The position numbers and the translations under genes are program-made. A DNA stretch of 41,691 nt from Pseudomonadota bacterium. Lineage in GTDB: Bacteria > Desulfobacterota > Syntrophorhabdia > Syntrophorhabdales > Syntrophorhabdaceae. Below the pieces are notes generated by a model, which worked only from the letters and a program-made list of their open reading frames with translations, did no database searches and was not told where the DNA came from. Of this stretch, positions 15,113 through 37,450 are shown one piece after another. The stretch spans positions 1 to 41,691 of the forward strand of contig JAPLKC010000134.1 of NCBI GenBank assembly GCA_026388255.1, read 5' to 3'. Every line of letters starts with the position of its first letter. The first letter of the stretch is position 1.

Positions 15113-15120
15113 GGGGGATT

Positions 15121-15909
15121 ATGGAAGAAACAAAAATCGCATTATTCAAAGGTAAAGGGATTCGTAAAACCCTATACGAAAACGAGTGGTGGTTTTCTGT
15201 AGTCGATGTATGCGTTGTATTGACTGAAAGTGCAGACGCGGGAGCATATTGGAGAAAGTTGAAACAGAGACTAAAGGAGGAAGGAAGTGAAGTCGTGACG
15301 TTTTGTCACGGGTTGAAGTTGCTTTCGCCCGACGGACAGCACAGGGAGACGGACTGTGCCAATACGGAAGGCATTTTCCGTGTTATCCAGTCAATCCCTT
15401 CCCCTAAAGCTGAACCTTTCAAACGCTGGCTGGCCAAAGTGGGATATGAGCGTGTTCAGGAGATAGAAGATCCTGAGCTTGCTACAAAGAGAACCCGGCT
15501 TCTGTATAAGCTCAAAGGATACCCTGATGACTGGATTGAAAAAAGGATGCGCGGTATTGCCATCCGTGAAGAGCTTACCGATGAATGGCAGAATCGCGGA
15601 GCGCAGGAAAAAAGGGATTATGAGATTCTCACCGCTGAAATATCAAAGGCAGCATTTGGACTAACTCCAACAGAATACAAGAAACATAAAGGATTAAAAC
15701 GCGAAAACCTCCGCGACCATATGGACGATTTTGAACTTATCTTTACTATGCTCAGTGAGCGGGCCACAACTGAAATCCACCGTACCGAAGATTCGCAGGG
15801 TATGAAAAAGCTCAAAGAAGACGCGAAGGCAGGTGGCGATATTGTCTCCAAGGCAAACTATTTAAGAAAACCTATGGAAAAGAAAAGGCTGCCGAAGAAA
15901 GCAAAGTAA
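15121..15909 (+). CDS. BRO-N domain protein (DinD/antirepressor-like)
   Basis: The 262-residue protein opens with a BRO-N/phage-antirepressor fold: GIRKTLYENEWWFSVVDV and LTESADAGAYWRKLKQRL (about 10-55), then CANTEGIFRVIQSIPSPKAEPFKRWLA (about 80-105). The C-terminal half, with LTDEWQNRGAQ, HKGLKRENLRDHM and a lysine-rich tail, matches the layout of DNA-damage-inducible protein D-like proteins as I recall them. BRO-N domains bind DNA. Its stop overlaps the methyltransferase start (TAATG), so it belongs to the operon and may act as a DNA-binding regulator or specificity helper of the restriction-like system. Confidence 0.8.
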   Translation: MEETKIALFKGKGIRKTLYENEWWFSVVDVCVVLTESADAGAYWRKLKQRLKEEGSEVVTFCHGLKLLSPDGQHRETDCANTEGIFRVIQSIPSPKAEPFKRWLAKVGYERVQEIEDPELATKRTRLLYKLKGYPDDWIEKRMRGIAIREELTDEWQNRGAQEKRDYEILTAEISKAAFGLTPTEYKKHKGLKRENLRDHMDDFELIFTMLSERATTEIHRTEDSQGMKKLKEDAKAGGDIVSKANYLRKPMEKKRLPKKAK

Positions 15910-16667
15910 TGGACAGAGACCAGGCGCAAAGTATTGTCAGAGAAACATTGGAGAGCCCTTTCGACAAGGGCAGATTTACATATTTCATCAAGAACCTCCT
16001 TAACTCAATCGAAGAAGCCCCATTTTCCTATAAGGGTAATTTTATTCCAGATGCGTACGACCAATACATAAGTGTCCTTGAACGTATTGGCAAATATTCC
16101 GATGGTGAGCATAAGATTGACATCCTTGTGGTGAAGCTTAAAAAAGAGACTTCCATCGAACGTGCCCGCACCATGCAGAGAAATTTCATTGCTTGGTATC
16201 TGAACGGCAGCCGCGGCGGAGATATGAAAGACGCGGCGCTTGCTGCCTTTGTTTCACCCGATCAGGAAGACTGGCGATTTTCCCTCGTCAAGATGGACTA
16301 TCGCGTTGAAGAAGGCAAAAACGGGAGAATGAAGATCAAAGAAGAATTCACCCCTGCCCGCAGGTGGTCTTTTCTCGTAGGCAAGAATGAAAACAGTCAC
16401 ACTGCACAAAGCCGGCTTGTTCCGATCATGGCCGACGATGAGCACGACCCAGCCCTTTCCCGGCTTGAAGAAGCCTTCAACATTGAAACGGTCACCAGAG
16501 AATTCTTTGAAAAATATCGTGAACTTTTTTTATGGACCAAAGAAGCCCTTGATAAGATTGTCTTTGAAAATCAGGCGGTCAAGACTGATTTTGAAACAAA
16601 GGGCGTCAACGCTGTTGATTTTGCCAAGAAGCTGCTCGGTCAGATCGTCTTTCTCTATTTTCTTTAG
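15909..16667 (+). CDS. N-terminal part of Eco57I-type R-M enzyme, ended by amber codon
   Basis: This 252-residue frame stops at TAG 16665-16667, but the same reading frame continues without interruption (KKGWFGVERDADWG...) into the methyltransferase at 16743-19283. Relatives, as I recall them, read FLYFLQKKGW here, so a single CAG-to-TAG change explains the split. The segment carries DILVVKLKKE and ALAAFV...WRFSLVKMDYR, features of the N-terminal region of large Eco57I-type restriction-modification polypeptides. Read together, 15909-19283 is a 1124-codon gene. The gene is either a recent pseudogene, read through by a suppressor, or a sequencing error. Confidence 0.8.
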   Translation: MDRDQAQSIVRETLESPFDKGRFTYFIKNLLNSIEEAPFSYKGNFIPDAYDQYISVLERIGKYSDGEHKIDILVVKLKKETSIERARTMQRNFIAWYLNGSRGGDMKDAALAAFVSPDQEDWRFSLVKMDYRVEEGKNGRMKIKEEFTPARRWSFLVGKNENSHTAQSRLVPIMADDEHDPALSRLEEAFNIETVTREFFEKYRELFLWTKEALDKIVFENQAVKTDFETKGVNAVDFAKKLLGQIVFLYFL

Positions 16668-16742
16668 AAGAAAGGCTGGTTTGGTGTTGAGCGCGATGCC
16701 GACTGGGGCACAGGGCCAAAGAATTTTCTCCGTGAGCTTTTT

Positions 16743-19283
16743 ATGGGCAAACACGGAACATACAATAATTTCTTCAATGAAATCCTCGAACCGCTCTTTT
16801 ATGAAGCACTGGCGAGGGAGAGAGATGGCGATTTTTACAGCCGTTTCAACTGTAAAATTCCCTTCTTGAACGGCGGCCTCTTTGATCCCATTGGAGGCTA
16901 TGACTGGGTACATATGGACATTCTTCTGCCCAACGACCTTTTTTCGAATGATAACAAAACCAAAGAAGGCGACAGCGGCAATGGCATCCTCGACATATTC
17001 GACCGTTACAATTTTACCGTTAAAGAAGATGAACCCCTTGAGAAGGAAGTGGCCGTTGATCCTGAGATGCTCGGAAAAGTTTTTGAAAATCTCCTGGAAG
17101 TAAAAGACCGCAAATCGAAAGGCACCTATTATACGCCCCGCGAGATCGTCCACTACATGTGCCGACAAAGCCTTATAAACTATCTCTATAATGAATTATC
17201 TGCCGGGGTTGTTGCCTACGAAAAAGTCGGCGAAGAGCAGCTTGACATGTTCGGCAATAAAGCAAAGACAGGACAACTGGATTTGACTATAGAATACATG
17301 TCGGGACCTGCCATTCCTAAAAAGGACATAGAAACGCTTATCCATTACGGTGAGCAGTTGGGTGAAAACGAAGCGACAGTGGAAGCAAAAGGCAGGGAAA
17401 CCGATAGATACTCCTATCAGTTGCCTGAAAGCATCCGGCAAAATGCCCGGATCATAGATGACAAGCTTGCTGCCATAAAGGTTTGCGACCCTGCTATCGG
17501 GAGTGGCGCCTTTCCCGTGGGAATGATGGGTGAGATTGTCAAGACCCGTAATGTCCTCTCTGTCTTTATAAAAGAGCCTTCGCGGACAATTTACCATTTT
17601 AAGCGCCATTGCATTGAGAAATCCATCTATGGCGTTGATATTGACCCCGGCGCGGTAGAAATAGCAAAACTCCGTCTCTGGCTATCCCTTGTCGTAGATG
17701 AGGATGATATCCGGGAGATCAAGCCGCTGCCGAACCTTGACTACAAAATTGTCTGCGGGAATTCCCTTGGAAGCGTCAAAAGGGACGTACTGAACGATCG
17801 TCTTTTTGCCGAATTGGAAATATTGAAGTCGCACTTTTTCGACGAGACAAGCCCTGGAAGAAAAAGGGAGGAAAAAACCCGCATTGACGCATTGATCGCG
17901 AAACTGACAAATAACGATACCCATTTTGACTACAACATCTTCTTCAGCGAGGTCTTCGACCATCGGGAAGGTTTCGATATCATCATTGCCAATCCCCCCT
18001 ATGTGCGACAAGAGGGGATAAAAGAGTTAAAACCCATGCTTTCTAAAGAGTTCGGTAAATTCTACTGCGGTACTGCCGACCTTTATACATATTTCTATAA
18101 ACGGGGTATAGACCTATTGAAATCAGGCGGTCATCTCTGTTTCATCGCTCCCAACAAGTTCATGCGCGCAGGCTATGGGAAGAACACGCGGGAGTTGCTG
18201 ACGGGCGTAGTTACGCCAAAGACAGTCATCGATTTCTGTGACCTGCCTATCTTCGATGCCACCACATATCCTTCAATCCTGCTTGTGGAAAAGCGTCGCC
18301 CCGGGCCGAAAGAGACAACCCTTGCCGCCACTTTTACCGACGCTTCACAACTGGAGCGGCTGGAAGAAGCCCTTGACAAAAAAGGTTTCTCCATGCCAGT
18401 TACGTCTTTGAGGAAAGAAGGCTGGGCACTTGAAAAGCCGGAAGTCTTATCCCTTATGGAAAAACTCCGCAAAGCCGGTACGCCTTTAGGTGAATATGTG
18501 AAGGGCCGGTTTTACCGGGGCATATTAACCGGACTTAACGAAGCATTTGTCATTGACGAGACAACGAAGAAGCGGCTTATTGCTGAAGACCCGAAAAGCG
18601 CAGAACTAATAAAACCCTGGCTCCGGGGACGGGATATCAAGAGATGGAAGGCGGAATGGGCAGGGTTGTATCTTATTACCATCCCAAGCAGTGCCAATAG
18701 GGATTGGCCCTGGTCAAATGCAAAGACAGAAAAAGCGGCGCATGACGTTTTTGAGCAACACTATCCTGCCATCCATTGCCACCTTACGCAATGGGAAGAT
18801 AAACTGAGAAAAAGGGACGATCAAGGCAAATACTGGTGGGAGCTGAGGTCATGCGCGTATTATGAGGAGTTTGAAGGGCCAAAGATTATTATCCCTGCAA
18901 TCACGAGTGGTGTTGAATATGCTATGAATAGAGATGGATTTTTTTCTAATGATAAGACCTCGATCTGTGCTTGTGACAATCCCGAATATGTTTGTGGGCT
19001 GTTGAACTCAACTGTTTTATGGTGGTTTATCAAACAGCTTGCCGCTACTCGACGTGGAGGATACTATGAATTCAAACCTATGTATGTCGAACAACTTCCA
19101 ATGCTGCCTGCCACCCCATTCCAGCAAGCCCCCATCATCGCCCTCGTCAATCAAATACTCGTTGACCCTGACTCCCCCGACGTCTCCCGCCTTGAAGCCG
19201 AGATCAACAACCTCGTCTATCAACTCTACAACCTCACTCCTGACGAAATCGCCATTGTTGAGGGTAAAAGAGGCAAGCAATAA
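16743..19283 (+). CDS. Eco57I-type adenine-specific DNA methyltransferase (C-terminal 846 residues)
   Basis: This is the continuation, in frame, of the preceding amber-interrupted gene. The N6-adenine methyltransferase core is complete: SKGTYYTPREIVHYMCR at the start of the domain, SAM-binding motif I KVCDPAIGSGAFPVGMM, GVDIDPGAVEIAKLRLWL, and catalytic NPPYVRQEG. The C-terminal third (WLRGRDIKRW, then NPEYVCGLLNSTVLWWFIKQL) is a target-recognition region. The first ATG after the stop is 16743 with no good ribosome site, so separate expression would be poor. It probably modifies host DNA at the site that the PLD-helicase complex uses for self/non-self discrimination. The stop overlaps the next start (TAATG). 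Confidence 0.88.
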   Translation: MGKHGTYNNFFNEILEPLFYEALARERDGDFYSRFNCKIPFLNGGLFDPIGGYDWVHMDILLPNDLFSNDNKTKEGDSGNGILDIFDRYNFTVKEDEPLEKEVAVDPEMLGKVFENLLEVKDRKSKGTYYTPREIVHYMCRQSLINYLYNELSAGVVAYEKVGEEQLDMFGNKAKTGQLDLTIEYMSGPAIPKKDIETLIHYGEQLGENEATVEAKGRETDRYSYQLPESIRQNARIIDDKLAAIKVCDPAIGSGAFPVGMMGEIVKTRNVLSVFIKEPSRTIYHFKRHCIEKSIYGVDIDPGAVEIAKLRLWLSLVVDEDDIREIKPLPNLDYKIVCGNSLGSVKRDVLNDRLFAELEILKSHFFDETSPGRKREEKTRIDALIAKLTNNDTHFDYNIFFSEVFDHREGFDIIIANPPYVRQEGIKELKPMLSKEFGKFYCGTADLYTYFYKRGIDLLKSGGHLCFIAPNKFMRAGYGKNTRELLTGVVTPKTVIDFCDLPIFDATTYPSILLVEKRRPGPKETTLAATFTDASQLERLEEALDKKGFSMPVTSLRKEGWALEKPEVLSLMEKLRKAGTPLGEYVKGRFYRGILTGLNEAFVIDETTKKRLIAEDPKSAELIKPWLRGRDIKRWKAEWAGLYLITIPSSANRDWPWSNAKTEKAAHDVFEQHYPAIHCHLTQWEDKLRKRDDQGKYWWELRSCAYYEEFEGPKIIIPAITSGVEYAMNRDGFFSNDKTSICACDNPEYVCGLLNSTVLWWFIKQLAATRRGGYYEFKPMYVEQLPMLPATPFQQAPIIALVNQILVDPDSPDVSRLEAEINNLVYQLYNLTPDEIAIVEGKRGKQ

Positions 19284-24118: not shown

Positions 24119-25357
24119 TTATTCAGCGTTAAATACCCTCCTATGTTCAGATGTAGCCGTTACTTGATATCCCTCGGTGGCTATCTTCCTGGCAACATTC
24201 ATCTCTTCATCAGAAACTACTTTGGCAAGAAATCTATCGAAATGGGGATCAACAATTCTGCTGATCCAATCAAACAAAACCGATTTTACTTTGAGTGAAT
24301 TCTTCGCAAATCTCAAACACCGGCTGCACCTCTCGGTTTTCCACTTGGGGTTCGATTTATCAATTGCATAGGCGGTTGCACAAAATGCAATTATCCATTC
24401 AAAAAGTTTGTGTATAACAAAAAAACATGCCGATCTCTTTTTGGCCAGTTCGACAAGCATCAATGTGCATTTTTTGCAGACAACGCTTTTTGGATCTGCC
24501 TTGTTTCTGTCTTCAACACTGTCTGTCTTTTGCGTACCGCCTGTTGGAATATTTTTCACATTGATAGTCTCCTTATTCTGGTGAAAAAAATACTTCTCCG
24601 TGAGATCCATAATCCGCCTTGCGATCTCCACAGGGGGTTCCGGAACTTTTTTGAAACTTGGGAAACACCCGGGATCAACGCTAAAAATTTGTCCATGTTT
24701 GTCTACCACAAGATCGAGATCTCCCCACTCAATACCTGTTGCTTTCTTGAAGGCGCCAACCACCTGGACCAACTCCTCCCAAACGGAAGCGGGTCTCATA
24801 TTTACGTCGTCTCCAACGTTAGGGTCCTTTTCGAAGCAAAAGATATCATCTCCAATAAAATCAACACGATAATGCCGTCCATTAATAAACTGTTGAATGT
24901 ATATCGGCCTTCCGGGATCATCGGCAAGTTTATGGAATTCAGACCAGTCTTGAATTAGCGTTAAATTTTTACCTCCTGAACTTGCTATTGGTTTGACAAT
25001 AAATGGCAACGGAAAGTCCTGATACCGTGCGAGATTGCCCTTAAGGTTATAGGTAGACTTTGGGTGAAGGATCTTTGCCCTTTCCATAAGCTGATCACAA
25101 AGTGGACGGATTCGGATGGCCTCCGCGACGAGAGGATCAGGGATTACTTTCGCACCGTGGCTCTTAGCCCGATACCCCGCATTCAGAAATTTTGGCTTTT
25201 TTGTCTTTAACACCACTAAATCGAATAATTCCAAGCTTGTTGCCTCAAGGAAGTCTCCATTGAACACTTGAACTTCATATGCACGCTCTTTCATCACGCA
25301 GACAAGGCCCTTTGTAAATTCATTATTCTTTTCTGCCAACAGTGCAATTTTTGTCAT
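24119..25357 (-). CDS. ATP-grasp ligase with Cys-containing C-terminal extension
   Basis: The N-terminal 270 residues form an ATP-grasp enzyme. A pre-ATP-grasp region is followed by LPFIVKPIASSGGKNL (ATP-binding Lys and Gly-rich loop), IYIQQFINGRHYRVDF, and the metal-site segment IEWGDLDLVV...FSVDPGCF. Such enzymes join a carboxylate to an amine or thiol through an acyl phosphate. An extra region (about 285-412) holds CKKC, ACFF, AFCATAY and ERCSRCLRF, which could bind zinc or an iron-sulphur cluster and which I do not recognise. The start overlaps the stop of the Cys-rich gene (ATGA). Its context with a radical-SAM enzyme and a GHMP kinase suggests peptide or cofactor biosynthesis. Confidence 0.82.
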   Translation of the reverse strand: MTKIALLAEKNNEFTKGLVCVMKERAYEVQVFNGDFLEATSLELFDLVVLKTKKPKFLNAGYRAKSHGAKVIPDPLVAEAIRIRPLCDQLMERAKILHPKSTYNLKGNLARYQDFPLPFIVKPIASSGGKNLTLIQDWSEFHKLADDPGRPIYIQQFINGRHYRVDFIGDDIFCFEKDPNVGDDVNMRPASVWEELVQVVGAFKKATGIEWGDLDLVVDKHGQIFSVDPGCFPSFKKVPEPPVEIARRIMDLTEKYFFHQNKETINVKNIPTGGTQKTDSVEDRNKADPKSVVCKKCTLMLVELAKKRSACFFVIHKLFEWIIAFCATAYAIDKSNPKWKTERCSRCLRFAKNSLKVKSVLFDWISRIVDPHFDRFLAKVVSDEEMNVARKIATEGYQVTATSEHRRVFNAE

Positions 25358-25770
25358 GAATTTCCTCCATTTGATTTAATAATTGGTGGTTCAGCCTTTA
25401 CATTGTTTCTGGAAAGGTGTGCTTCTTCAGGACACAATCCTTTTCGAAAACACTTAGGTTTTGATCCTTTTTTTCGATATCTTTCTAAACACATGCAACA
25501 CATTGCGCTCGGCAAAATGTAGGGGCATAATTTTGTGCATGGGCAAATACCCGTGTTTTCACTCTTTCGAGGACATTTAAAACGGCGCCCATGAGCAATG
25601 GAGATATCTTTCACGGGATTTCTTCGGAACATAATACTGGCCAATACAAAATTGCCTGCCCGTCTTGCTATGGATAAACAAATGGGGACAGCATTGGTTT
25701 GAATCGATTCTTTAATGCAAAGGCAGCAGACACCTTTACATCTGAACCTTACAGCATTCAGTTTTTTCAT
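25354..25770 (-). CDS. 14-cysteine protein with duplicated CCxC motif
   Basis: The 138-residue basic protein has cysteines at 11, 15, 16, 18, 31, 66, 76, 78, 82, 91, 92, 94, 107 and 113. The segments CKGVCCLCIKE and LPSAMCCMCLER look like two copies of a CCxC motif, each followed by another Cys 12-13 residues later, which suggests metal or Fe-S binding by an internal duplication. The tail (about 115-138) is polar and free of Cys. Its first 35 bases overlap the radical-SAM gene and its stop overlaps the ATP-grasp start (ATGA). It may be an electron-transfer or metal-delivery partner, or a substrate protein. No family is recognised. Confidence 0.65.
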   Translation of the reverse strand: MKKLNAVRFRCKGVCCLCIKESIQTNAVPICLSIARRAGNFVLASIMFRRNPVKDISIAHGRRFKCPRKSENTGICPCTKLCPYILPSAMCCMCLERYRKKGSKPKCFRKGLCPEEAHLSRNNVKAEPPIIKSNGGNS

Positions 25771-26854
25771 GAGCCTGCCACATGTATATATTCATGAACA
25801 TATCGTTATAAAAACACGTGCAATTTTTTGATGTTGCAAGCCGTTTTCTTACATAGTTGAATGTATTGCCATTCCATATTTCTTTAAAAGATTGCTTTCT
25901 AAGATTGCCAACATGTTGAAGCTGCTCCACGCAGGGATATACATCACCTGTAGGGGTAATTCTTACGACCCAGTGTCCGGCTAAACATGGTAGATGACAG
26001 AAACGTTTCGGATCCTCTAAATAGTCAGGCATCAAGGCATTATAAAAATTTTTGTCCAGGCCCGTATCGTGGAGAATAGATTTCAGCTTACCGATAGATG
26101 ATACGATCTGTAAACCATCGGTCAGCCGATACAGGTTGTGAGAACCATTGTGAAGAGGCTGTAAGAGAATGCTATCTACAACTTCGTTCCAATAAGAGAC
26201 AAAAAAAGCAATTTCGTCAAGGTTATCTTCATGAAGTAACATTCTGCAGGAAATAGTTGTGCCATCTTTGATTCTTTTTTTTATGATTGATCTAATGCCT
26301 AATTCAGCATGCTGAAAAAGACCTCTTACACCTCGCATTTTATCATGGCTCTCTGGTTTTCCATCCATACTGACTATGATATGATCAGTATGAGCATTTA
26401 TAAGTGCGTCAGACCTTTCAGCCAACAGAGCGCCATTTGTACAGATACTTACGCAAAGACCAAGCTTCTTGATATAGCGAATAATATCAGGAAGATCCTT
26501 GACAAGGAGCGGTTCTCCGCCTGCTATGCATATAAAGCGGGTGCCTGCTTCTGCTAACTCCTTGATGATACGGAATATCTCATCTGTGGTCAGCTCGTCG
26601 TGTAGCTCTTGCTGTGATCTGCCGCAATGCAAGCATCTGGCCTGGCAGCGATACGATAGGTCAATAGCAGCATACTTCGGACCGGTGTTTAAATTCAATC
26701 CACAGTAAGGCGCAATAGATGAGATAGCAGCCCTTGATAACTCGGAAATTCCTTTTATAGTTCCTGTTTTTGCCCTAATGTAACTGAGGGCAGCGGTCCA
26801 TTCATGGCCATTTTGATATTTACGAAGCGGATTGTTCCGGTTGTTTTTGCTCAT
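25736..26854 (-). CDS. Radical SAM/SPASM enzyme
   Basis: The 372-residue protein has the radical-SAM motif CQARCLHC (about 70-77) after AIDLSYR, the GGEPLL strand, and VSMDGKPESHDKMRG typical of the peptide-modifying branch. The C-terminal SPASM region has CHLPCLAGHWVVRITPTGDVYPC, then VGNL, WNG, and a final Cys group (CTCF, ECC), able to hold auxiliary 4Fe-4S clusters. SPASM enzymes usually modify peptides (cross-links, epimers) or activate partners. ATG 26854 overlaps the kinase stop (ATGA) and has AGGAGG 6 bases upstream. No obvious short precursor gene with a recognisable core is adjacent, so the substrate is open. Confidence 0.9.
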   Translation of the reverse strand: MSKNNRNNPLRKYQNGHEWTAALSYIRAKTGTIKGISELSRAAISSIAPYCGLNLNTGPKYAAIDLSYRCQARCLHCGRSQQELHDELTTDEIFRIIKELAEAGTRFICIAGGEPLLVKDLPDIIRYIKKLGLCVSICTNGALLAERSDALINAHTDHIIVSMDGKPESHDKMRGVRGLFQHAELGIRSIIKKRIKDGTTISCRMLLHEDNLDEIAFFVSYWNEVVDSILLQPLHNGSHNLYRLTDGLQIVSSIGKLKSILHDTGLDKNFYNALMPDYLEDPKRFCHLPCLAGHWVVRITPTGDVYPCVEQLQHVGNLRKQSFKEIWNGNTFNYVRKRLATSKNCTCFYNDMFMNIYMWQAHEKTECCKVQM

Positions 26855-27807
26855 ATCGCCTCCTTATACTTGGTGGATTCGGCACAGAGAATCTTCGTAC
26901 CGGAATTGTCGATGTTGGTAACCATGATTTCATGTCCATACTTCCGCCAGGTGTTCACGATGGAAGGTGTGTTTGCCTTAGCGACCACGGCGGCAATGGC
27001 AGGCCCTTTGCCAGAAACCCCGGCACCTAACGCTCCTACCCTGAGGGCTTCAAAGACTGGTTCTGAAGAATAGCCAAAATGGGGGGCATGCAGTAGCCCA
27101 GAGAGTGTCATGGCGGTGAACACATGTCCCGTAGCGGCTATTCTGTAAAGCTTCTCAATAAGGTGTTTATGAACTTTTAAGGCCTCTCTAGATCCGGTAG
27201 GCACCTGCCTTGTCTCTTTAGGCGGCGCTAGGATAATGACATCCAAACCGCTATCGTCTAAATTCTCTCTATGTAGGAGCCTGCGCGACCCGCAATCGGC
27301 AAACACTAGCCCTCCACAAAGGCTGGCAAAACCGTCATCAACACTGCCAAATGTGCTTACACCCGTATCAATCTCTGCGCTCCGAGCAATCGCCATTATA
27401 TGGTTTGTTCCCAAATCCAATCCGAGGGCGTCGGACGTTGCCATCACAGTGGCGTTCGCAAGAGAGGAACTGCTCTTTAAACCCCGCTCGATCGGTAGGT
27501 CGAAATCGATATCGATCTTCGCATCGAAGGAGCGATATGCTGACGTTAGGCCTGTGGTCTTTCTAAAGCACATTTCAACGAGACGTGTCCCCTTGTCTGA
27601 AGAGTAACTGGATGCAATCCTAATCCTCGTATCACCCGATGATATAGGCTTCAGAAGGACTGTCACCGTTTGTCCCAGCCCTATAGCAAATGCCACCCCC
27701 TGTCCTGTTGAGTATGAGTTGATGACGGAACATGCTCCTGGCGCACGTGCCGATCCAATCCTGACACCATCTTCTTTCTGATCTCCTCTGTTTATCCTTA
27801 TTCCCAT
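26851..27807 (-). CDS. GHMP kinase, archaeal-type shikimate kinase family
   Basis: The 318-residue protein has the GHMP signatures: N-terminal RAPGACSVINSYSTGQGVAF, the ATP loop ERGLKSSSSLANATV (about 110-122) and a C-terminal GVSGKGPAIAAVV. The SVINSYSTGQGVAFAIGL and GLKSSSSLANA segments match archaeal shikimate kinase rather than homoserine or mevalonate kinases. Bacteria normally use the unrelated P-loop AroK, and no other shikimate gene is near, so this copy probably phosphorylates a different, pathway-specific alcohol. GGAGGAGG precedes ATG 27807. It is the first gene of a five-gene coupled operon with radical-SAM and ATP-grasp enzymes. Confidence 0.8.
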   Translation of the reverse strand: MGIRINRGDQKEDGVRIGSARAPGACSVINSYSTGQGVAFAIGLGQTVTVLLKPISSGDTRIRIASSYSSDKGTRLVEMCFRKTTGLTSAYRSFDAKIDIDFDLPIERGLKSSSSLANATVMATSDALGLDLGTNHIMAIARSAEIDTGVSTFGSVDDGFASLCGGLVFADCGSRRLLHRENLDDSGLDVIILAPPKETRQVPTGSREALKVHKHLIEKLYRIAATGHVFTAMTLSGLLHAPHFGYSSEPVFEALRVGALGAGVSGKGPAIAAVVAKANTPSIVNTWRKYGHEIMVTNIDNSGTKILCAESTKYKEAI

Positions 27808-28504: not shown

Positions 28505-29485
28505 TCAAATGCGGCGGCTCCAGAAGCCAGATCTGAGAAACATTTGTTTGGTATCCTCCTGTCGATTGGACAAGCACACAGTGTCAGTAGATAAGTCAAA
28601 TACTTCAGGTACACGTAAGTGAAGGTGTATCTCGCTTACACCGTCTATTATTTTTTTTCCCGGGTCCCTCGAAGGATGCTGGTGAATGAGCATTGCATGA
28701 TTTGTTTTCTCCGTAAAAAGCCGATTCAGATCACGGCAACTCTGAACATTATCCTGATCGGTGCTTATTACTTCACAGGACCAGTCCGTCTTACCTCTTG
28801 GTTTATCCGGGTCGAGAGCCCACTGAATGAGACGGTATGAATGTCTGGGCCGCCGGACATATTCCTCAGGAGAAGGGTCTGGTTCACCAGCCCTCGTAAA
28901 GGCAAAACTCATCTCTGTTCCATCATCTGAAGGAATTAAGACATGCATTATAAGATCAACAGCGCTCCACACGGATTTCAAAGTCTTCTTGATGGAATCT
29001 GTGTAACCCTTACGGAGCGAATTCTTACTGAGCGTGTAAGAATTTGAGTAAATTGGGGATGCGTTTATCTCAGACAGGAAATCCTGTGCATCGGGCAGAT
29101 CGTGATCATCAGCACGTAGTTCCGAGAATATTAGAATAGGTACCCCTGGCAAAGTGGCAGGTTGTCCCTCCAAACGGTAGCCTTGAAGCCCGGAGCGGAT
29201 AGCTTCATATATGTGAACTCCCTGGTCGCGTTGTCCTTTAAAAACTAAATCAAGCACAATCAAGTCGTATCGATTCCTGCAAAACAATTCCAGCCCTCTT
29301 GGTTGAAGTGCCCGCGCATTCCAGGTCTGTGCAAAATCTAGCCTACAATTTCTAGCGATTTCATCCGATAGCTCTTTAAACATTGCTTCCAACGCCGACC
29401 TATCACTCGGGCTCAGGTCGTCATCCAAGATAAGCACATTTATTGTTTGGTCAGTTTGCTTCATGGTGAAGTCCATTCCTTTCAT
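28505..29485 (-). CDS. Receiver-domain protein with unknown C-terminal domain
   Basis: The N-terminal 150 residues form a response-regulator receiver: INVLILDDD (acidic pair), YDLIVLDLVFKG (phospho-acceptor Asp) and VPILIFSEL (switch Ser). A long insertion separates the strands. The C-terminal half (about 170-326) contains AMLIHQHPSRDPGKK and a histidine-containing strand SEIHLHLRVPEVF; I do not recognise it and it is not a normal DNA-binding output domain. Its start overlaps the preceding gene by 35 bases (ATG 29464 is an alternative start). It is probably the last gene of the ABC-GHKL-serine dehydratase operon and may be phosphorylated by the GHKL protein. Confidence 0.75.
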   Translation of the reverse strand: MKGMDFTMKQTDQTINVLILDDDLSPSDRSALEAMFKELSDEIARNCRLDFAQTWNARALQPRGLELFCRNRYDLIVLDLVFKGQRDQGVHIYEAIRSGLQGYRLEGQPATLPGVPILIFSELRADDHDLPDAQDFLSEINASPIYSNSYTLSKNSLRKGYTDSIKKTLKSVWSAVDLIMHVLIPSDDGTEMSFAFTRAGEPDPSPEEYVRRPRHSYRLIQWALDPDKPRGKTDWSCEVISTDQDNVQSCRDLNRLFTEKTNHAMLIHQHPSRDPGKKIIDGVSEIHLHLRVPEVFDLSTDTVCLSNRQEDTKQMFLRSGFWSRRI

Positions 29486-30215
29486 TCAGGTAAACTCTCG
29501 TTGACAACAATTCTTCGATCACCCCAAGAACGTCTTTTAATTTAGAGGGCCACTTATCTTCCAGCAACTCGTCAACCTTCCTGATAAGCTCTATCGAAGC
29601 ATAGTCCCCTAAAATGAATCTGATTTGTCGGAGTCCTTCCATATATTTATCGATATCATCCGGAGATGACCGATATCTCGAAAACCCGTGAAACACTCTC
29701 AAGATTAACTCTGACGGCTGACAGTAATGGCGAATTTGCATCTCCGCCCTCTCATGGGTAGATTCCGGCACAACAAGAGTCGGCCAATCTGGCGGCATTT
29801 TTCTCTCAATCCGACAAAGAATCTCCGGCACATGACCGAACTTAATAATACTTGATTCGAGCCACCAGTAACTCCACGGACCCTGAGTACTTACATCATC
29901 GCTGAAAAGATCTAGAACATCGGGACGTGGTACACCATAAAAACATATAGGGCTAAGAATTTGAGCTTGTTTCCGGATTGAAAAAAGGGCGTGGCTGACC
30001 AACTGTTCACTGCTTATGCGCCATGCAACGAGAACCGGATCCGGTCTTGCACCAGGTTTTGTTTCACGTATTTCTTTCCATGATGACTCTGTATATACGT
30101 GATAAGCCTTATCATCACTAAGAAACAAGATTGCCAGAGTGCTTGCCAGTTCCCAGTCTCCCTTTTCTGATACCACAGCCACAAACTTGCCTGTCGCAAA
30201 CTTGCGCATTGTCAT
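29451..30215 (-). CDS. Unknown 254-residue protein, receiver-like N-terminus
   Basis: The N-terminal 110 residues alternate strands and helices (KFVAVVSEKGD, DPVLVAWRISSE, SPICFYGVPRPD) like a degenerate receiver fold, but the acidic pocket and Lys are not clear, so it would be a pseudo-receiver at most. The rest (about 160-254) is helical, ending in a Lys/Glu/Leu-rich segment. The start overlaps the stop of the serine dehydratase fusion (ATGA), so it is made in step with it and probably acts as a partner. No named family is recognised. Confidence 0.65.
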   Translation of the reverse strand: MTMRKFATGKFVAVVSEKGDWELASTLAILFLSDDKAYHVYTESSWKEIRETKPGARPDPVLVAWRISSEQLVSHALFSIRKQAQILSPICFYGVPRPDVLDLFSDDVSTQGPWSYWWLESSIIKFGHVPEILCRIERKMPPDWPTLVVPESTHERAEMQIRHYCQPSELILRVFHGFSRYRSSPDDIDKYMEGLRQIRFILGDYASIELIRKVDELLEDKWPSKLKDVLGVIEELLSTRVYLNERNGLHHEAN

Positions 30216-33200
30216 TTAGGGCACTCCGACTCAGTTCCTTGAAGGTTGCAGGAACTGCACTTACTTCTACCCGAAATCGTTCGTGCCAGACCTCCTAACG
30301 ATGTTTCTCTGAACTTCTCCGGCATGGCTTCACCGGCCTCTCGAAGAACCCATAGCACTTCATCGGGGAGGATGTCCGACTTCACGCCTTTATATGCAGC
30401 CACACCTGCGATGAGTGCCTCTGCAGCCTTCATGCCAGAACGTTTAATACATGGTGTCTCTACCTTGCCTCCAACTGGATCGCAGATAAGACCTATGGAA
30501 TTCTTAAGCGCGAGAGCCACTGCATTCATAACCTGTTCTTGATTATTGCCATCCCCCAAATAATCGCAGACGGCAGCAGCAGCCATTGCCGCCCCAACTC
30601 CTGTTTCCGCTTGACAGCCTAATAAGGCTCCCGCTGTCGGCACCACGTTGTTGATAATCAGCCCAACCATTCCCGATACAAGCAGCGCGCCCTCGAGCTT
30701 TTCAACCATTCTCCCGTCCAATTTCTCGAGCTTGTCCATCAGGCTATGTGGCTCGAGCTTCAGCTTATACTCCTCATCTGGGTCCTCAAGCAATTCAATA
30801 AGGCTTGCTATGATCTTATCGTTAAGAGCCAGAGCAAAGAGGGCTCCTGGAAGTATTCCGCATGCTCCAGCGGTAGGGGCGGCAATGATTCGTCCCATTC
30901 TGGCATTTTGTTCCTGGACCGCGAGCGAGAAGGCATAAGCTCGCCAAGCTAACCCAAGAGACTCATTCTGTGTTTCGAGAGGAATAGCCGCATCGTCATA
31001 GAGCTTCTGCGCCAAGTTCTTGCTATACCCTGAGTGGGCCGTCTGTCCTGGATCCAATTTCAGACCTTCCAAGATTGAGAGCAACATAACCCCAAGAACA
31101 CCACGTAAGCTCAACAACATCTCCACACCATCGGTGGATAACGTCTCACTTTCCTTCGGTTTTTGAATGGACTCCTTGTTACGTCCAGACAAACTCATCT
31201 CGTATTTTTTAGCTTTCTGCTTAATTGTTCCTTTGTTCCTAAGTGCTAAGCCCTCAAGCGTTGTGACTAATTCCGGAATAACAGAATCTTTCATGCTTTC
31301 CATGGTAGCTCCTACGCTGAAAAGCGGGCTCTCATTCTGATCTCTCATTTCTGTTATGTCCAGTTCTGTAGAACCCTCTTTGGAATAGATGAAGATTTCC
31401 TTACACCCGGAGAACTGTTTCCTATTCTCATTTAGCATATCCTCAGAAAACTGTTGGGAAAATTTTGTGCCATTGGCATTCATCTCCATTCCGCTTATCT
31501 GAACATTTCCTCCGCCCCAAGAGCGGCAAGCGAGGCGCCCAAGTTCCTGCCCCTGCTCGCCTTTTAAACGGAATTGAATTGTGTTAGGGTGTAGTTCGGA
31601 AGGGCGGTTTTCACCCCAAAGTAGTCGAATCTCTTTTACCCCGATTGAGTTATCCTCCGGCCATGTTCCTATTTCAATTTCGCGTATTTGGGATTCTGGA
31701 GACTTTATCGGGAAGAACGCGAGCCGCCCATTTGGAAGATCCTTGCTCGATGGCAACTTGCCTAGTAGTCCGGTTAGAACAGCGTGATCCGATCCATGGC
31801 CCCTCCCTGTCGTCCGGAAAGATCCAAGCATCTCGATGTCAAGAGACAGGTTGCTTCCTGCCAGCCCATTCTTTCCAATTCCCTGAATCCAGTTCCTACA
31901 CAATCTCCCTATCCGGCAAGCGCCCGCTGTATGAGAACTCGATGGTCCTACCATATCTGGTCCGACAATATCAAATATGCTCAGAGGTGAAAAATCTGAA
32001 ACCACCATGAAATGCAAGTCGTCGGAGAATCCCATCAAGGCCTGACCCATCTCCCTCCCGGTCATTCCGTCAGTTGAGATTTCGAAAACAAAAGCAGAAA
32101 TGTTATTCGAAGGACTCATTCTATCGCGTTCCTTATATTGACATTCAACCCTGAGTTTTCTATTCAGGGACCTCATAAAAACAGCGCACAATCTCTGTTT
32201 CAACTTATCTGCGTAAAAGTAAATATCTTGCTCTTGTGCCTCGGCTGGCGTTCTCATTGCTATCGCTACACGATAAATGTTGTCGTCAAATGCAAGTGGG
32301 GCGAAGACGAACCGTCGGTTCTTCTGAAGAACCTGCAGGGCGAGGACTGCTACATTGCACGGTTCGTCTTTGATACGACCCTTCGAAGCTTTGCATAACG
32401 CTTCAGCAAGTTTCTTTGCTATGGTCAATGCACCCTGGATATCTTTCGGCCCCAAAAATTCTCCTATGTATGCAGCCAGCGTTATTTCTTGGACAGATTG
32501 TACGCCCGCAAAATTAGCACACCAATCATCGAAGTCGGGATCCGAGACCCATTGTGCCAGGAATTCAAGATCTGCATATTGAGCATCGTCAACGAGGATG
32601 GCACGGCCAAGTTCAACAGTGCTTTCCAAAGTCAGGTCGTGTTTGATTCTAGGGATCTTGATCTCATCTACGTTCCAGTGTTTATAGAGGACCTTTCTGA
32701 TTGTGGATTGCCACTCTTTGGGTACAACTGAATCCGCCTTAGATTCTTGCCTTTGATTCAAATCTCCGTATTGTTGCATAAGGTAGGCGTCCGGTCTCTT
32801 GCAAAGATAGCTTACGGCACCCACGTCTCTGAAGTCATTGATTATATTTACAAATCCCCATCGAGAGGCAACAATAACAGGCGTTCCGGGAAGAAGTTGC
32901 CTCAAAGCTTCCAAGTACTCACGAGTGACATTACCATATCCTTGCCATCCAAAGTCAATGTCAAGTATTACTAAGTGTGTCGGCCCTTCTCCGGCAGATT
33001 CTTTGATTTTATCTTTTGCTCTATCAAGAAGCACTCTAGGCGATGTTATCTCTATAAATTCGTTATCCACTCTGGGAAGGCCTGTCAAGAAAGCAAATGA
33101 CCAGGGTTCCAAGGCGGCCATTCGATCAAACCAGGGGAATAGTAGCGGATAGAAATCGTCAATCACCAATATACGGAAAAGGTTTCTACTTTTACTCCCT

Positions 33201-33865
33201 AGATGAGGAAACAATTGAAGTTCATCACAAGCAATATGGAACTCTTTAATCACATAGTTTGCCAATGCTAAGATTTCCTTCCGGTCTTGATCGACGCTTC
33301 GGAACTCATCTGCAAGATCAGGAGATACAGGGTTTGACATTGGCCCTATGTAGTTTTTGATCTTTCCAACTTTGACTCCGCAGATATTTTTTGTGTCATC
33401 CATCATGGCATCCCGCAAGTGATCCCTGAAGTCCCTTAGCTTGTCGGCGCCATCTTTACTCTCTTGCGAAAATTCTTGAAAACCGTCTTGTAGAGATTCT
33501 ATCAGTTCAAAGAGACGTAAAGGACCGGCCAAGGAGCGGCCACCTTCATAATTTGTGCTTTCCTGATGCAGTTGGTCAACCTTATTTCTTACCAGATCAA
33601 AGAAATAGGGAATTAGGTCCCTAAATGGTGCTTTCATAACAGTTGTAGCTGCACCTGTTGGGGTTGAATCTTTATCTGCCACTTTCTTAAGAGTTTCCCA
33701 TATATCGAACTTAGGATTTACACTTACTATCTCCTCAATCGAGATATACTTAGAATTTTGCAAACAGCGCTGCTTTATGAATGCACCGATAGCCGAAGCA
33801 TTCGGTACTAATCTACGAGCAACTTCAATTTCCCCAACCCCCAGATATTTATCATATGTTTTCAT
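30212..33865 (-). CDS. Receiver domain fused to Fe-S L-serine dehydratase
   Basis: This 1217-residue fusion has four parts. Residues 1-225 are helical and unknown. A receiver domain (about 230-390) shows FRILVIDDFYP, phospho-acceptor Asp in LVILDIDFGW and Lys in YLCKRPDAY. A linker of about 240 residues follows. The L-serine dehydratase beta domain starts near 635 with DIVGPDMVGPSSSHTAGACR, and the alpha domain runs from about 930 to 1200 with NARMGRIIAAPTAGACGILP. The three cluster cysteines are all present: GCQAETG (about 1083), LICDPVGG (about 1125) and TPCIKRSG (about 1137). The enzyme converts L-serine to pyruvate and ammonia with an oxygen-labile [4Fe-4S] cluster. A normal serine dehydratase is about 450 residues. 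The receiver should allow phosphorylation by the GHKL protein encoded 12 bases upstream. Confidence 0.9.
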   Translation of the reverse strand: MKTYDKYLGVGEIEVARRLVPNASAIGAFIKQRCLQNSKYISIEEIVSVNPKFDIWETLKKVADKDSTPTGAATTVMKAPFRDLIPYFFDLVRNKVDQLHQESTNYEGGRSLAGPLRLFELIESLQDGFQEFSQESKDGADKLRDFRDHLRDAMMDDTKNICGVKVGKIKNYIGPMSNPVSPDLADEFRSVDQDRKEILALANYVIKEFHIACDELQLFPHLGSKSRNLFRILVIDDFYPLLFPWFDRMAALEPWSFAFLTGLPRVDNEFIEITSPRVLLDRAKDKIKESAGEGPTHLVILDIDFGWQGYGNVTREYLEALRQLLPGTPVIVASRWGFVNIINDFRDVGAVSYLCKRPDAYLMQQYGDLNQRQESKADSVVPKEWQSTIRKVLYKHWNVDEIKIPRIKHDLTLESTVELGRAILVDDAQYADLEFLAQWVSDPDFDDWCANFAGVQSVQEITLAAYIGEFLGPKDIQGALTIAKKLAEALCKASKGRIKDEPCNVAVLALQVLQKNRRFVFAPLAFDDNIYRVAIAMRTPAEAQEQDIYFYADKLKQRLCAVFMRSLNRKLRVECQYKERDRMSPSNNISAFVFEISTDGMTGREMGQALMGFSDDLHFMVVSDFSPLSIFDIVGPDMVGPSSSHTAGACRIGRLCRNWIQGIGKNGLAGSNLSLDIEMLGSFRTTGRGHGSDHAVLTGLLGKLPSSKDLPNGRLAFFPIKSPESQIREIEIGTWPEDNSIGVKEIRLLWGENRPSELHPNTIQFRLKGEQGQELGRLACRSWGGGNVQISGMEMNANGTKFSQQFSEDMLNENRKQFSGCKEIFIYSKEGSTELDITEMRDQNESPLFSVGATMESMKDSVIPELVTTLEGLALRNKGTIKQKAKKYEMSLSGRNKESIQKPKESETLSTDGVEMLLSLRGVLGVMLLSILEGLKLDPGQTAHSGYSKNLAQKLYDDAAIPLETQNESLGLAWRAYAFSLAVQEQNARMGRIIAAPTAGACGILPGALFALALNDKIIASLIELLEDPDEEYKLKLEPHSLMDKLEKLDGRMVEKLEGALLVSGMVGLIINNVVPTAGALLGCQAETGVGAAMAAAAVCDYLGDGNNQEQVMNAVALALKNSIGLICDPVGGKVETPCIKRSGMKAAEALIAGVAAYKGVKSDILPDEVLWVLREAGEAMPEKFRETSLGGLARTISGRSKCSSCNLQGTESECPK

Positions 33866-33877
33866 TATAATGACCCC

Positions 33878-36800
33878 CTAACTTGTTGGGAAGAGTTGTT
33901 CAAGGAATTCTTTATCTTTCATAAGACGTTCTTGAGTGAGTCTCCATTTCATTCCCAAAATTTTTGATGTCTCCTGAAACGTGTTGCCATAAATTGCATC
34001 AATTTTTCCCAGTATCCAGTCGATGGCGAGCCATTTCAGACTTGGATCAAAAGTCAATGATTGCCCAGTAAATAGATCAACAAACTCTAGCGCATCATGG
34101 ATTTCTTCTGGATCGTAAGGTTTCCGTGACAGGAAGTCATTTCCGAAGTGTTGGAAGAAAAAATTATGACACTTACCAAAATCGCGTTTGGTCCTTTCGA
34201 TCCTTCCTGGACCAGCTAAGTCGAAAACTATCTTCTTCTTGTTTTCAATAACATCCTTTTCATCAAGGTTGTCTTTCTTAAGTGTCTGATCACACCAATC
34301 TCGAAATTCCTGATGATATGTGCCACGAAATCCATATTGTACCCCGATGTTATAAAGCCTTGGATCTTCCGAAATAAGCCAAACAAGGATCCGTTGGGAC
34401 CCACTTTGATAGACTTCATTTGCTTGTTTACACCACTCCTCAATTTCTTTTTCATTGTATTTTGCTCTTGCTGTATGGAGTATAATAGCATGCGGTAGGC
34501 TATTATGATGTTTGCATTCTTCAAAAAAGCTCTCATGGATCGCTTCAGGCTTGTTCACACCAAACAACCTGTATCGCTCTCGGTCATCGCTTGCCGGATT
34601 AGCATCATAGATCACTACCTTATAACCATCAATAGGTTCTTGAGGTACCGTTGGGCCAGTCAAACTCTGCAGTTCACAATTCTGCAGTAACAAGAATGCC
34701 ACTTGGGTCTCCTCTCCATTGGTAGGTAGCGGCATATCAAGAATCTTCTCAGATGCGTTTACCTCTTTTTGTAATGTTTTCAAATCTTCAATAACTGCCT
34801 GGGCAGCACTCTTCCATGTTCCATCTTCTGCTATTTTATCTGGCTCAGTTATACCATCATGTCCAAGAAGGTAAAGTCTTAGTTCGCGATCCTGCACGTA
34901 TCCCCTTTGTGCTTGAAGGGTTCTCATCATGACTCGGATGCCCTGCCCGGCCCCCTCCTCTTTGCCTGCTATGCCAGGAGTTTTTGTTTGGTAGATCTCG
35001 AAGGGAAGTTTGTGGTTAATGTAGTTCCTAAGCTCCCCTTGTATGCCATGTGGTTTATTGTCCCAAAACAAAATTCCAGCTGCTCTGTGATTGTTTTCCA
35101 AATCACAAATGTGAAATGTAACGTTGATCCGCACTGCGGATTCGCTTTCCTCATTGACTACGTATTTTCCATCCACTCCTTTGTATACTGCGGCATGCTT
35201 AAAAGCGTTATGCACCAATACTTCTAAGATTGTTTCTATCACCCCAGGCAAAATATCAATAAATAAAGGACTCTCCTCATGCCATGGAACGCGATGCGCA
35301 AAAAGACGCAAACGTCTCCAATACGCGGCCTCTTTACCACCGCATAACTTTAGATCATCACTTTCTTCTGGCAAGTAAGTCCACATTTGCATCCCAGGTA
35401 ATGTGAGGAAAAGATCAAAAAGGTTCCTCATGGTCACGTGGTGGCCTGACGATTTACGTTGATGCTCCGATGACTTAGGCGCTAAAATATCAATTCCTGA
35501 TTGCATACCGGCAATTCTCTGCCTAGTGATCATGCCCGTCTTCTGAAACTTTAAATAATGCCACCTGTCTTTGATCTTTTTTGGATTAAGGTCTTTAGGC
35601 AAGCCATACCTCTCATCCCTCGGAATCAACATTTCTCCGTAGAAATCACTGGAACCCAGGTTGTGCTTGGTGAATGCATGTCCAAATTCCCGGAAATAGT
35701 CAGAGAAAACTTCGAAGGTCGCAAGTTGATTTGCAAGTTTGCCAGACATACTCGACGCCTGCCGCGCAAGCTTGACAAACCTTGAGCGAGAGAAGACGGC
35801 ATCAATTCCTGGAAAAAGAATGTTTGTCAACCATTCTATGACGTCATCCGAAAGTGCACGATGTGCCTGCTCACAAATTAACGACCGGGCAATTGCCATA
35901 ACTGTTTCACTTAGCCCAAGGACAGACATGAAAGCAATCTCGGCAATGTGCGATAATTCAACTTCCAGAATATCGGAGCAAAACGCTAACTTAGTCTTTT
36001 TGCCGTTGGCATCAATACGGTACTCTTGATTCACCCGGTAACGAGATTCCTCCAAATCTGGGTCAAACAATCTCGTCTTGCCAGATAGACAGCAAAGACC
36101 GAAACCGAGCCTTTGTTCTGGATACCAACGTATTGGAAAAACTAGTTTGTCCTTCGGCAGGCTCTCATCAAATTCTCTGATTGCTCCCGTGAGTTTATCT
36201 GCCCGGCTTTTTTCTTCAGGTTTTTCTTCAGGATAGTGATAGCCTCCATAGACACGCATCATTGCTGAACCCGACCAAGATGTTTTGAGGATATTGCTCC
36301 ACTGATCATTTAACATAGCATTCAACTCTTCACACCATTTCTTCTTTTCACTCTCGTTATAGCATTCATCATAGTGCGAAATGAGTTTTTTGAGCACTGT
36401 GCCAGCATCTGCTCCTTGCATTTTGATTCCCCTATCATAGGGGACAGAAGGAGTGAGTTTCGATGGGTTATTGAGATATATCATTGGGAAGAGGAGTGCA
36501 TAACAGAGATTATTTTCCAGTAAGGTCTTCGGGTCCTTTGGATCTTCCGGCAATTTCTTGGATATTCCCTGGCTTAACGAAAAAATCTGTTCAAGTAGTC
36601 TCGGAATTCTTGGTATGCAACAACATAGTGTTATATCGTTAGGAAATGTTTCTGGATCAAGTACCCAGCCATATTGATAACTATTTGTTCCCACCTTTAC
36701 GCTGGAAAAGCACAGAAAATGATGCCAGCGCCTGATAGTCAAGGTTCCCAGAGATAATACATATCGGATATTGTCTAAGGCATCAGAGATTAGGTTATAT

Positions 36801-37450
36801 CCAAAGTTGTCCACCTCTTCCTTCTGGTCGCCGTTGTTGGCTCCAAGCAAAACAATCTCTTCAGGTACTTTTTCTTTTCCAAAGGCTTGGTTGATTCTCT
36901 CAGAGAGCATTTTCAATTGAAAAGAGCAGTTTTTACAACTAGTTAAATCACTAAACGCCTCACTTTTTTCGGTCCTTCTCAAGAGAAGAAAAACAAGTAG
37001 GCTGCTATCTAGACAAGAGAACCGTCCAATCTCTCTTATGAAATCAGGTTTAGAATCGTTCCATGAATCCAGTTCATTCTTGAAATCATCAAAGGAAGTT
37101 TCTGGCTTGAATTCATTCCCGTTTTGCACCCACCATATATCAATGAGGGTCTCAATTTCTTTAGTATTATAGCCTATACCAAGACTGTCTAGATCGGACG
37201 ATTCAAACACCTTTCTCTCATATTTTCCTTTCTTCTCTGTAAACTTTACACAAATAAACCGGTCCCAGTTCGGATCTGGAATCCAGTTTTTCGGATAAAA
37301 TCCACAATCTTTGATTTGTAATGATAAGCAACGCTTAGAAAGAATCGGGATCAAGCTTTTCGCAATGGGATCTCCGTTTTCTATGCTTTCGCAGCGGAAC
37401 ACACACCGAAGGACTTCGATTTTCCAGTCAATATCATTACTTTCCTTCAT
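33878..37450 (-). CDS. Giant soluble GHKL ATPase, histidine-kinase-like sensor
   Basis: The 1190-residue protein has no transmembrane segment visible. The ATPase part shows an N box ETILEVLVHNAFKHAA (about 737-752), a G1-like GILFWDNKPHG (about 795-805, with Asp-Asn and Gly retained but reordered spacing) and a G2 box GAGQGIRVMMRT (about 830-842). REFGHAFTKHN near 590 is the best candidate for the phospho-acceptor histidine. A C-terminal alpha/beta segment (about 930-1060, YKVVIYDANP, HAIILHTARAKY, ILVWLISEDP) looks like a pseudo-receiver. The 550 N-terminal residues are unknown and probably sense the signal. The gene lies between the ABC importer and the receiver-serine dehydratase fusion, its likely partner. 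Confidence 0.72.
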   Translation of the reverse strand: MKESNDIDWKIEVLRCVFRCESIENGDPIAKSLIPILSKRCLSLQIKDCGFYPKNWIPDPNWDRFICVKFTEKKGKYERKVFESSDLDSLGIGYNTKEIETLIDIWWVQNGNEFKPETSFDDFKNELDSWNDSKPDFIREIGRFSCLDSSLLVFLLLRRTEKSEAFSDLTSCKNCSFQLKMLSERINQAFGKEKVPEEIVLLGANNGDQKEEVDNFGYNLISDALDNIRYVLSLGTLTIRRWHHFLCFSSVKVGTNSYQYGWVLDPETFPNDITLCCCIPRIPRLLEQIFSLSQGISKKLPEDPKDPKTLLENNLCYALLFPMIYLNNPSKLTPSVPYDRGIKMQGADAGTVLKKLISHYDECYNESEKKKWCEELNAMLNDQWSNILKTSWSGSAMMRVYGGYHYPEEKPEEKSRADKLTGAIREFDESLPKDKLVFPIRWYPEQRLGFGLCCLSGKTRLFDPDLEESRYRVNQEYRIDANGKKTKLAFCSDILEVELSHIAEIAFMSVLGLSETVMAIARSLICEQAHRALSDDVIEWLTNILFPGIDAVFSRSRFVKLARQASSMSGKLANQLATFEVFSDYFREFGHAFTKHNLGSSDFYGEMLIPRDERYGLPKDLNPKKIKDRWHYLKFQKTGMITRQRIAGMQSGIDILAPKSSEHQRKSSGHHVTMRNLFDLFLTLPGMQMWTYLPEESDDLKLCGGKEAAYWRRLRLFAHRVPWHEESPLFIDILPGVIETILEVLVHNAFKHAAVYKGVDGKYVVNEESESAVRINVTFHICDLENNHRAAGILFWDNKPHGIQGELRNYINHKLPFEIYQTKTPGIAGKEEGAGQGIRVMMRTLQAQRGYVQDRELRLYLLGHDGITEPDKIAEDGTWKSAAQAVIEDLKTLQKEVNASEKILDMPLPTNGEETQVAFLLLQNCELQSLTGPTVPQEPIDGYKVVIYDANPASDDRERYRLFGVNKPEAIHESFFEECKHHNSLPHAIILHTARAKYNEKEIEEWCKQANEVYQSGSQRILVWLISEDPRLYNIGVQYGFRGTYHQEFRDWCDQTLKKDNLDEKDVIENKKKIVFDLAGPGRIERTKRDFGKCHNFFFQHFGNDFLSRKPYDPEEIHDALEFVDLFTGQSLTFDPSLKWLAIDWILGKIDAIYGNTFQETSKILGMKWRLTQERLMKDKEFLEQLFPTS

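What the first reader, a model, noticed from the sequence alone, without database searches (positions are those of the whole stretch)
30212..33865. Response-regulator receiver fused to a complete iron-sulphur L-serine dehydratase
One 1217-residue frame contains a receiver domain with acidic pair, acceptor Asp and Lys, followed by both serine dehydratase domains with all three cluster cysteines and the SSSHTAG motif. Family knowledge: serine dehydratases are metabolic enzymes regulated by an ACT or ACT-like part, and receiver output domains are usually DNA-binding or signalling enzymes. A phospho-switch on serine breakdown would be a direct sensor-to-metabolism link. I know of no described example.
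Basis: partly seen in the sequence, partly recalled or inferred. Interest (0 to 1): 0.88.

Follow-up and report, generated by a model that had tools for sequence, protein, structure and literature searches.

The report
Phospho-receiver fused to serine dehydratase
A bacterium carries, on a mobile stretch of DNA, one protein that joins a signal-receiving switch to a complete serine-destroying enzyme, apparently controlled by a sensor kinase encoded just upstream; sensors wired directly to metabolic enzymes are known as a kind, but this enzyme in that place has not been found before in what could be searched here.

Summary
Window 30212-33865 (-) encodes 1217 residues in one frame: about 220 unknown residues, a divergent receiver (about 222-400; D236/D237, D302, S334, K356), about 220 unknown residues, then SDH_beta and SDH_alpha. 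The [4Fe-4S] cysteines (C1084, C1128, C1139) and the counterpart of the catalytic base His61 (H690) are kept. Pfam misses the receiver, but a genome-specific HMM, pairwise matches to real receivers and motif spacing support it. The gene lies in a tight operon behind a 1190-residue cytosolic protein with a divergent histidine-kinase-type ATPase domain and ahead of a second receiver protein, within a compositionally foreign island holding recombinases and restriction genes. No full-length relative was found in any collection searched; no other SDH_alpha fused this way was seen in several hundred sampled genomes. It is the genome's only SDH_alpha, on a very long branch beside type I enzymes. Best explanation: the kinase phosphorylates D302 and so gates serine deamination. 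Purpose is open: regulated amino-acid use, or a Detocs-like defence depleting serine. Receivers fused to metabolic enzymes are a recognised class, so this is a new variant of a known kind, seen in one genome; phosphorylation and activity are untested.

The parts
30212..33865 (-). RR-SDH, 1217 aa: N-terminal region + receiver + linker + L-serine dehydratase beta and alpha domains
   Evidence: ORF; Pfam SDH_beta and SDH_alpha; receiver HMM and BLAST
32666..33202 (-). Receiver domain, residues 222-400; acidic pair D236/D237, acceptor D302 (codon 32960-32962), S334, K356
   Evidence: HMM above all 3000 shuffles; pairwise match to NtrC and hybrid-kinase receivers; PF00072 E 0.03
33203..33865 (-). 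N-terminal region, residues 1-221, no known domain
   Evidence: no Pfam match; no plasmid or phage match for residues 1-622
32006..32665 (-). Linker region, residues 401-620, no known domain
   Evidence: no Pfam match
31499..31954 (-). SDH_beta domain, residues 638-789, with GPSSSHTAG and H690 (GRGHGSD), counterpart of catalytic base His61 of the Legionella enzyme
   Evidence: Pfam; alignment to 4rqo; role of His61 (PMC12647591)
30278..31078 (-). SDH_alpha domain, about residues 930-1196, with C1084, C1128, C1139
   Evidence: Pfam; alignments
33878..37450 (-). 1190-aa cytosolic protein with divergent HATPase domain (N-box NAFKHA from N748, G2 GAGQGI from 833); presumed histidine kinase; candidate H-box FGHAFTKH (H591)
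   Evidence: HATPase HMM above all 3000 shuffles for residues 700-900; no strongly hydrophobic segment; not found by Pfam
29451..30215 (-). p3, 254 aa, unknown, overlaps the RR-SDH stop codon by 4 bases
   Evidence: ORF; no family match
28505..29485 (-). p4, 326 aa: second receiver (D79 candidate acceptor) + unknown C-terminal part, overlaps p3 by 35 bases
   Evidence: HMM above all shuffles; 32% to a CheY-like receiver over 76 aa
37503..40160 (-). ABC transporter (substrate-binding PF04392, permease PF02653, ATPase), same strand, ends 52 bases upstream of the kinase gene
   Evidence: Pfam

Best explanation
RR-SDH is a response regulator whose output domain is a complete iron-sulphur L-serine dehydratase. 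The soluble 1190-aa protein encoded just upstream senses a signal inside the cell through its roughly 540-residue N-terminal part, phosphorylates itself and passes the phosphate to D302 of RR-SDH. The change in the receiver switches the dehydratase, most likely on, so that L-serine becomes pyruvate and ammonia. The second receiver, p4, competes for or buffers phosphate, or carries a second output. The unit travels on a mobile island. Shown here: domain content, preserved residues, gene order, foreign composition. Inferred: kinase activity, phosphotransfer, enzyme activity, direction of the switch and purpose.
For: Receiver with all key residues; dehydratase with the three cluster cysteines and the catalytic histidine preserved despite a branch of 3.24 changes per column, which suggests selection for catalysis; HATPase-containing gene 12 bases upstream and second receiver gene downstream, overlapping; the only SDH_alpha in the genome.
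Against: The phospho-accepting histidine is not established, and the HATPase domain is too divergent for Pfam even at E 10 genome-wide. No relative was found, so conservation of D302 or of the fusion cannot be tested. AlphaFold without relatives failed (pLDDT 42 for the receiver, 34 for the kinase core). The loop SG[LI][ST]GGD of type I enzymes is lost and 26 of 81 otherwise invariant alpha positions differ, so catalysis could be altered.
Confidence: 0.6

Rival explanations
1. Detocs-like antiviral system: the kinase detects infection and phosphorylates RR-SDH, which rapidly destroys free L-serine (and makes ammonia), starving phage and cell of serine and one-carbon units. This is the same switch as in the best explanation, with defence as the purpose.
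For: Layout of soluble kinase, receiver protein and receiver-effector, like the 3-gene defensive two-component system Detocs with a metabolite-destroying effector (PMC11249213; detail from own knowledge of Rousset et al. 2023). It lies on a foreign island with recombinases, a type IIG restriction enzyme, a PLD-helicase and PADLOC candidate PDC-S13. Rare and fast-evolving.
Against: No sequence match of any of the four proteins to PADLOC models; no immune effector of this enzyme family is known to me or found in the library; serine depletion may be slower than ATP or NAD depletion; an amino-acid-type ABC transporter shares the operon.
Confidence: 0.3
2. Metabolic control unit: the ABC transporter, kinase and RR-SDH form one operon that couples uptake of an amino acid or related nutrient to regulated serine breakdown for carbon and energy.
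For: Three ABC genes on the same strand ending 52 bases before the kinase gene; the only SDH_alpha in the genome; in the Legionella enzyme a C-terminal Cys is an intrinsic inhibitor, and the Cys-rich tail here (C1203, C1206, C1215) could serve similarly.
Against: The kinase shows no membrane or periplasmic part to read a binding protein; transporter substrate unknown; the SDH branch is far longer than those of metabolic enzymes.
Confidence: 0.35
3. The dehydratase fold is used as a serine sensor: it binds serine and tunes the receiver or kinase, without significant catalysis.
For: Very long branch and many changed positions in the alpha domain.
Against: All three cluster cysteines and the catalytic histidine are kept, which a mere sensor would not need.
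Confidence: 0.12
4. Assembly artefact or pseudogene: two unrelated genes joined, or a decaying gene.
For: GC3 and codon use shift modestly at the SDH boundary.
Against: Open frame of 1217 codons; genes on either side that are both two-component-like; p3 and p4 return to the lower GC3; catalytic residues preserved.
Confidence: 0.04

Closest known systems
Response regulators with enzymatic output domains (REC + metabolic enzyme; review class in PMC5847659, from Galperin 2006/2010)
   Same: Receiver fused to a standard metabolic enzyme, with very narrow phyletic spread
   Different: [quoted passage not shown] no serine dehydratase. Here the receiver is divergent and sits inside a long chain behind 220 unknown residues
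Detocs, the defensive two-component system (PMC11249213)
   Same: Soluble kinase-like gene, separate receiver protein and receiver-effector that destroys a small molecule; island with defence genes
   Different: Effector is a dehydratase instead of the ATP-cleaving PNP; four genes; no sequence match detected; defence not shown
Type I L-serine dehydratase SdaAA/SdaAB (two subunits, Bacillota)
   Same: Alpha domain 32-37% identical and joined to this clade with 100/99 support; all catalytic motifs
   Different: Beta and alpha in one chain, long insert near residues 1010-1045, receiver in front, very long branch
Type II single-chain L-serine dehydratase (Legionella 4rqo)
   Same: Beta then alpha in one chain, Cys-containing C-terminal tail
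   Different: Only 27-32% identity to the single-chain enzymes of the host phylum; groups apart from them in the tree

Membership tests
Response regulator (receiver-containing protein) | Acidic pair, acceptor Asp, Ser/Thr and Lys in receiver order and spacing | tested here: met
   D236/D237, D302, S334, K356; D-S 32, S-K 22 residues; aligned on NtrC and hybrid-kinase receivers
Response regulator (receiver-containing protein) | Recognised by Pfam Response_reg above cut-off | tested here: not met
   Not reported at E 1 against Pfam; 16.1 bits vs cut-off 30.2; insert of about 20 residues between the acidic pair and D302. A detection threshold, not a biochemical requirement
Response regulator (receiver-containing protein) | Phosphorylation by a cognate kinase | not testable with these tools
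   Adjacent HATPase gene only
Iron-sulphur L-serine dehydratase | SDH_beta and SDH_alpha domains above cut-off | tested here: met
   65.6 vs 26.0 and 171.7 vs 26.4 bits
Iron-sulphur L-serine dehydratase | Three cluster cysteines and catalytic histidine | tested here: met
   C1084, C1128, C1139, H690
Iron-sulphur L-serine dehydratase | NCBIfam equivalog cut-off for L-serine ammonia-lyase | tested here: not met
   TIGR00720 199 vs 345 bits; TIGR00718 157 vs 243; so a divergent homologue, not called an equivalog
Iron-sulphur L-serine dehydratase | Deaminates L-serine | not testable with these tools
   needs assay
Histidine kinase (upstream gene) | HATPase domain with N, G1 and G2 boxes | tested here: met
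   Motifs at N748, about 794 and 833; HMM score 7.5 vs shuffle maximum 6.9, a narrow margin, but none of 3000 reached it
Histidine kinase (upstream gene) | Phospho-accepting histidine in a dimerisation helix | tested here: inconclusive
   FGHAFTKH is a candidate only; structure prediction failed
Detocs | Kinase + lone receiver + receiver-effector operon | tested here: inconclusive
   Gene order, HATPase and two receivers fit; but p4 is not a lone receiver (extra C-terminal part) and there is a fourth gene
Detocs | PNP or other described effector | tested here: not met
   Effector is SDH
Detocs | Sequence similarity to DtcA/B/C | not tested
   No Detocs sequences were at hand; no PADLOC match of any kind
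Detocs | Protects against phage | not testable with these tools
   needs experiment

The most novel reading that the evidence does not exclude
A new kind of phosphorelay defence system in which infection switches on a receiver-coupled iron-sulphur serine dehydratase, so that the cell is stripped of L-serine: amino-acid depletion as an immune effector.
Probability: 0.25. Interest if true: 0.85.

Novelty: new variant of a known kind. Interest (0 to 1): 0.58.

Why it matters
If the switch works as inferred, a kinase would set the rate of a central amino-acid-degrading enzyme directly, without transcription. That would extend the short list of receiver-enzyme fusions and, in the defence reading, add amino-acid destruction to the ways cells deny viruses their building blocks. 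It is testable with one purified protein and acetyl phosphate.

Tried and rejected
Relatives were sought and not found. RR-SDH: 60 related genomes, 327 genomes of another class in the phylum, plasmids, genome contigs by rare peptides; only ordinary SDH domains matched. Its N-terminal half: plasmids and phages. Kinase: 395 genomes of the phylum, plasmids, viral contigs, 12 genomes of another class. Kinase core, N-terminal half, p3 and p4 together: all 46 genomes of the class; N-half, p3 and p4: 395 genomes (only hits to ordinary receivers and weak p3-region matches). Crafted motif alignments (rows 2 and 3 artificial, only to place the search patterns) against viral contigs and 84,980 genomes gave no confirmed relative; these scans need near-exact motifs and may miss distant kin. 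Two long SDH frames in other genomes (1360 and 1176 aa) looked like fusions but are tandem genes or GC-rich read-through. Contamination of the assembly by a foreign contig was rejected: the rest of the 84.9-kb contig has the genome's own tetranucleotide signature. Single-sequence AlphaFold of the receiver and the kinase core gave models too poor to use or to search with. A PF02518 search did not reach the kinase. Rfam found no RNA in the window.

Full report
What is there. The minus-strand frame 30212-33865 encodes 1217 residues. Pfam finds SDH_beta at 638-789 and SDH_alpha up to 1194, both well above their cut-offs, and the nearest solved structure by sequence is the Legionella L-serine dehydratase 4rqo. 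The three conserved cluster cysteines align as C1084, C1128 and C1139, with spacings 44 and 11. His61 of the Legionella enzyme, the proposed catalytic base (PMC12647591), corresponds by position in the alignment to H690 in GRGHGSD. GPSSSHTAG is intact. Against type I enzymes, 30 of 38 invariant beta positions and 55 of 81 invariant alpha positions are kept; the SG[LI][ST]GGD loop is lost and there is an insert near 1010-1045. In a tree the alpha domain joins type I enzymes (100/99) on a branch of 3.24 changes per column against a median of 0.29; its exact place is therefore unsure.

The receiver. Pfam does not report it, so the claim needed its own test. PF00072 run on the whole genome hits residues 290-359 at E 0.03 and p4 at E 0.8. 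An HMM made from 29 receivers of the same genome scores residues 222-400 at 9.2 bits and p4 12-170 at 10.2 bits, above every one of 3000 shuffles each (maxima 4.7 and 7.9), while flanking segments are no better than their shuffles. A genome search returned true receivers as the best matches, and direct alignment puts D302, S334 and K356 on the acceptor, the Ser/Thr and the Lys. The acidic pair D236/D237 lies 65 residues before D302, about 20 more than in CheY (CheY spacing from own knowledge), which probably explains the Pfam miss.

The setting. Twelve bases upstream, 33878-37450 encodes 1190 residues with no strongly hydrophobic segment and a divergent HATPase region: NAFKHA, FWDNKP, GAGQGI, scoring above all 3000 shuffles with a genome-specific HATPase HMM, though narrowly (7.5 vs 6.9). 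Pfam misses it too. Downstream, p3 (254 aa) and p4 (326 aa, a second receiver) overlap one another and RR-SDH. Three ABC transporter genes with a PF04392 binding protein end 52 bases upstream of the kinase gene. The window is the first half of an 84.9-kb contig. Its 28-40 kb stretch correlates only 0.17-0.39 in tetranucleotide signature with sampled native contigs, which mostly correlate at 0.6-0.85 with each other, while the remainder of the contig tested (41-80 kb) is native-like; the 12-kb stretch is shorter than most of the samples, so part of the drop is sampling noise. Recombinases lie at 296-919 and 9765-10763, and an integrase at contig 47.1-48.3 kb. A PLD-helicase, a type IIG restriction-modification enzyme and a PADLOC candidate are nearby. 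This is a mobile island with defence content.

Distribution. This is the only SDH_alpha of its genome. None of 395 genomes of the phylum (56 with SDH_alpha; longest other open frame 693 aa) and none of 327 genomes of another class in the phylum has such a fusion among the matches listed; two long frames proved spurious. No relative of the kinase, the N-terminal half, p3 or p4 was found. Conservation of D302 and of the junction therefore cannot be tested.

Mechanism. The best reading is a phosphorelay-gated serine dehydratase: kinase to D302 to enzyme. What is shown is anatomy; kinase activity, transfer, turnover and direction are inferred. Purpose is unresolved between regulated amino-acid use (transporter in the operon) and a Detocs-like defence that destroys serine (island, layout, fast evolution). 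The SDH half has somewhat higher GC3 and a different codon use from the receiver half and the flanking genes, a weak hint that the enzyme was captured later by an existing receiver protein.

Known or new. Receivers attached to metabolic enzymes are described as a class with narrow distributions (PMC5847659). Searches of the held literature found no receiver-serine dehydratase fusion, but the two Galperin surveys themselves were not held. Hence a new variant of a known kind, from one genome.

Noticed in passing
24119-27807 (-): Cluster of an archaeal-type shikimate kinase (TIGR01920 above cut-off), a radical SAM/SPASM protein, a 138-aa unknown and an ATP-grasp protein on the foreign island: looks like an unnamed biosynthetic unit.
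   Followed up: no
15909-19283 (+): Type IIG restriction-modification enzyme split in two reading frames that match consecutive parts of one PADLOC model (1-253 and 282-1145 of 1148).
   Followed up: no
4773-8797 (-): 922-aa unknown protein overlapping an HD-CE domain protein, possibly another conflict system.
   Followed up: no
11918-15909 (+): PLD-SNF2 helicase followed by a BRO-N protein matching PADLOC candidate PDC-S13 (E 1e-109).
   Followed up: no
L075 1030-4047 (contig 42721-45738): 1005-aa protein with a GHKL-type ATPase start, topoisomerase VI-like by eye, partly masked, between the island genes and the integrase.
   Followed up: no
33878-37450, residues about 940-1060 of the kinase: C-terminal stretch that looks like a receiver without the acceptor Asp (VVIYDAN, AIILHTA); the HMM test did not support it.
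   Followed up: partly
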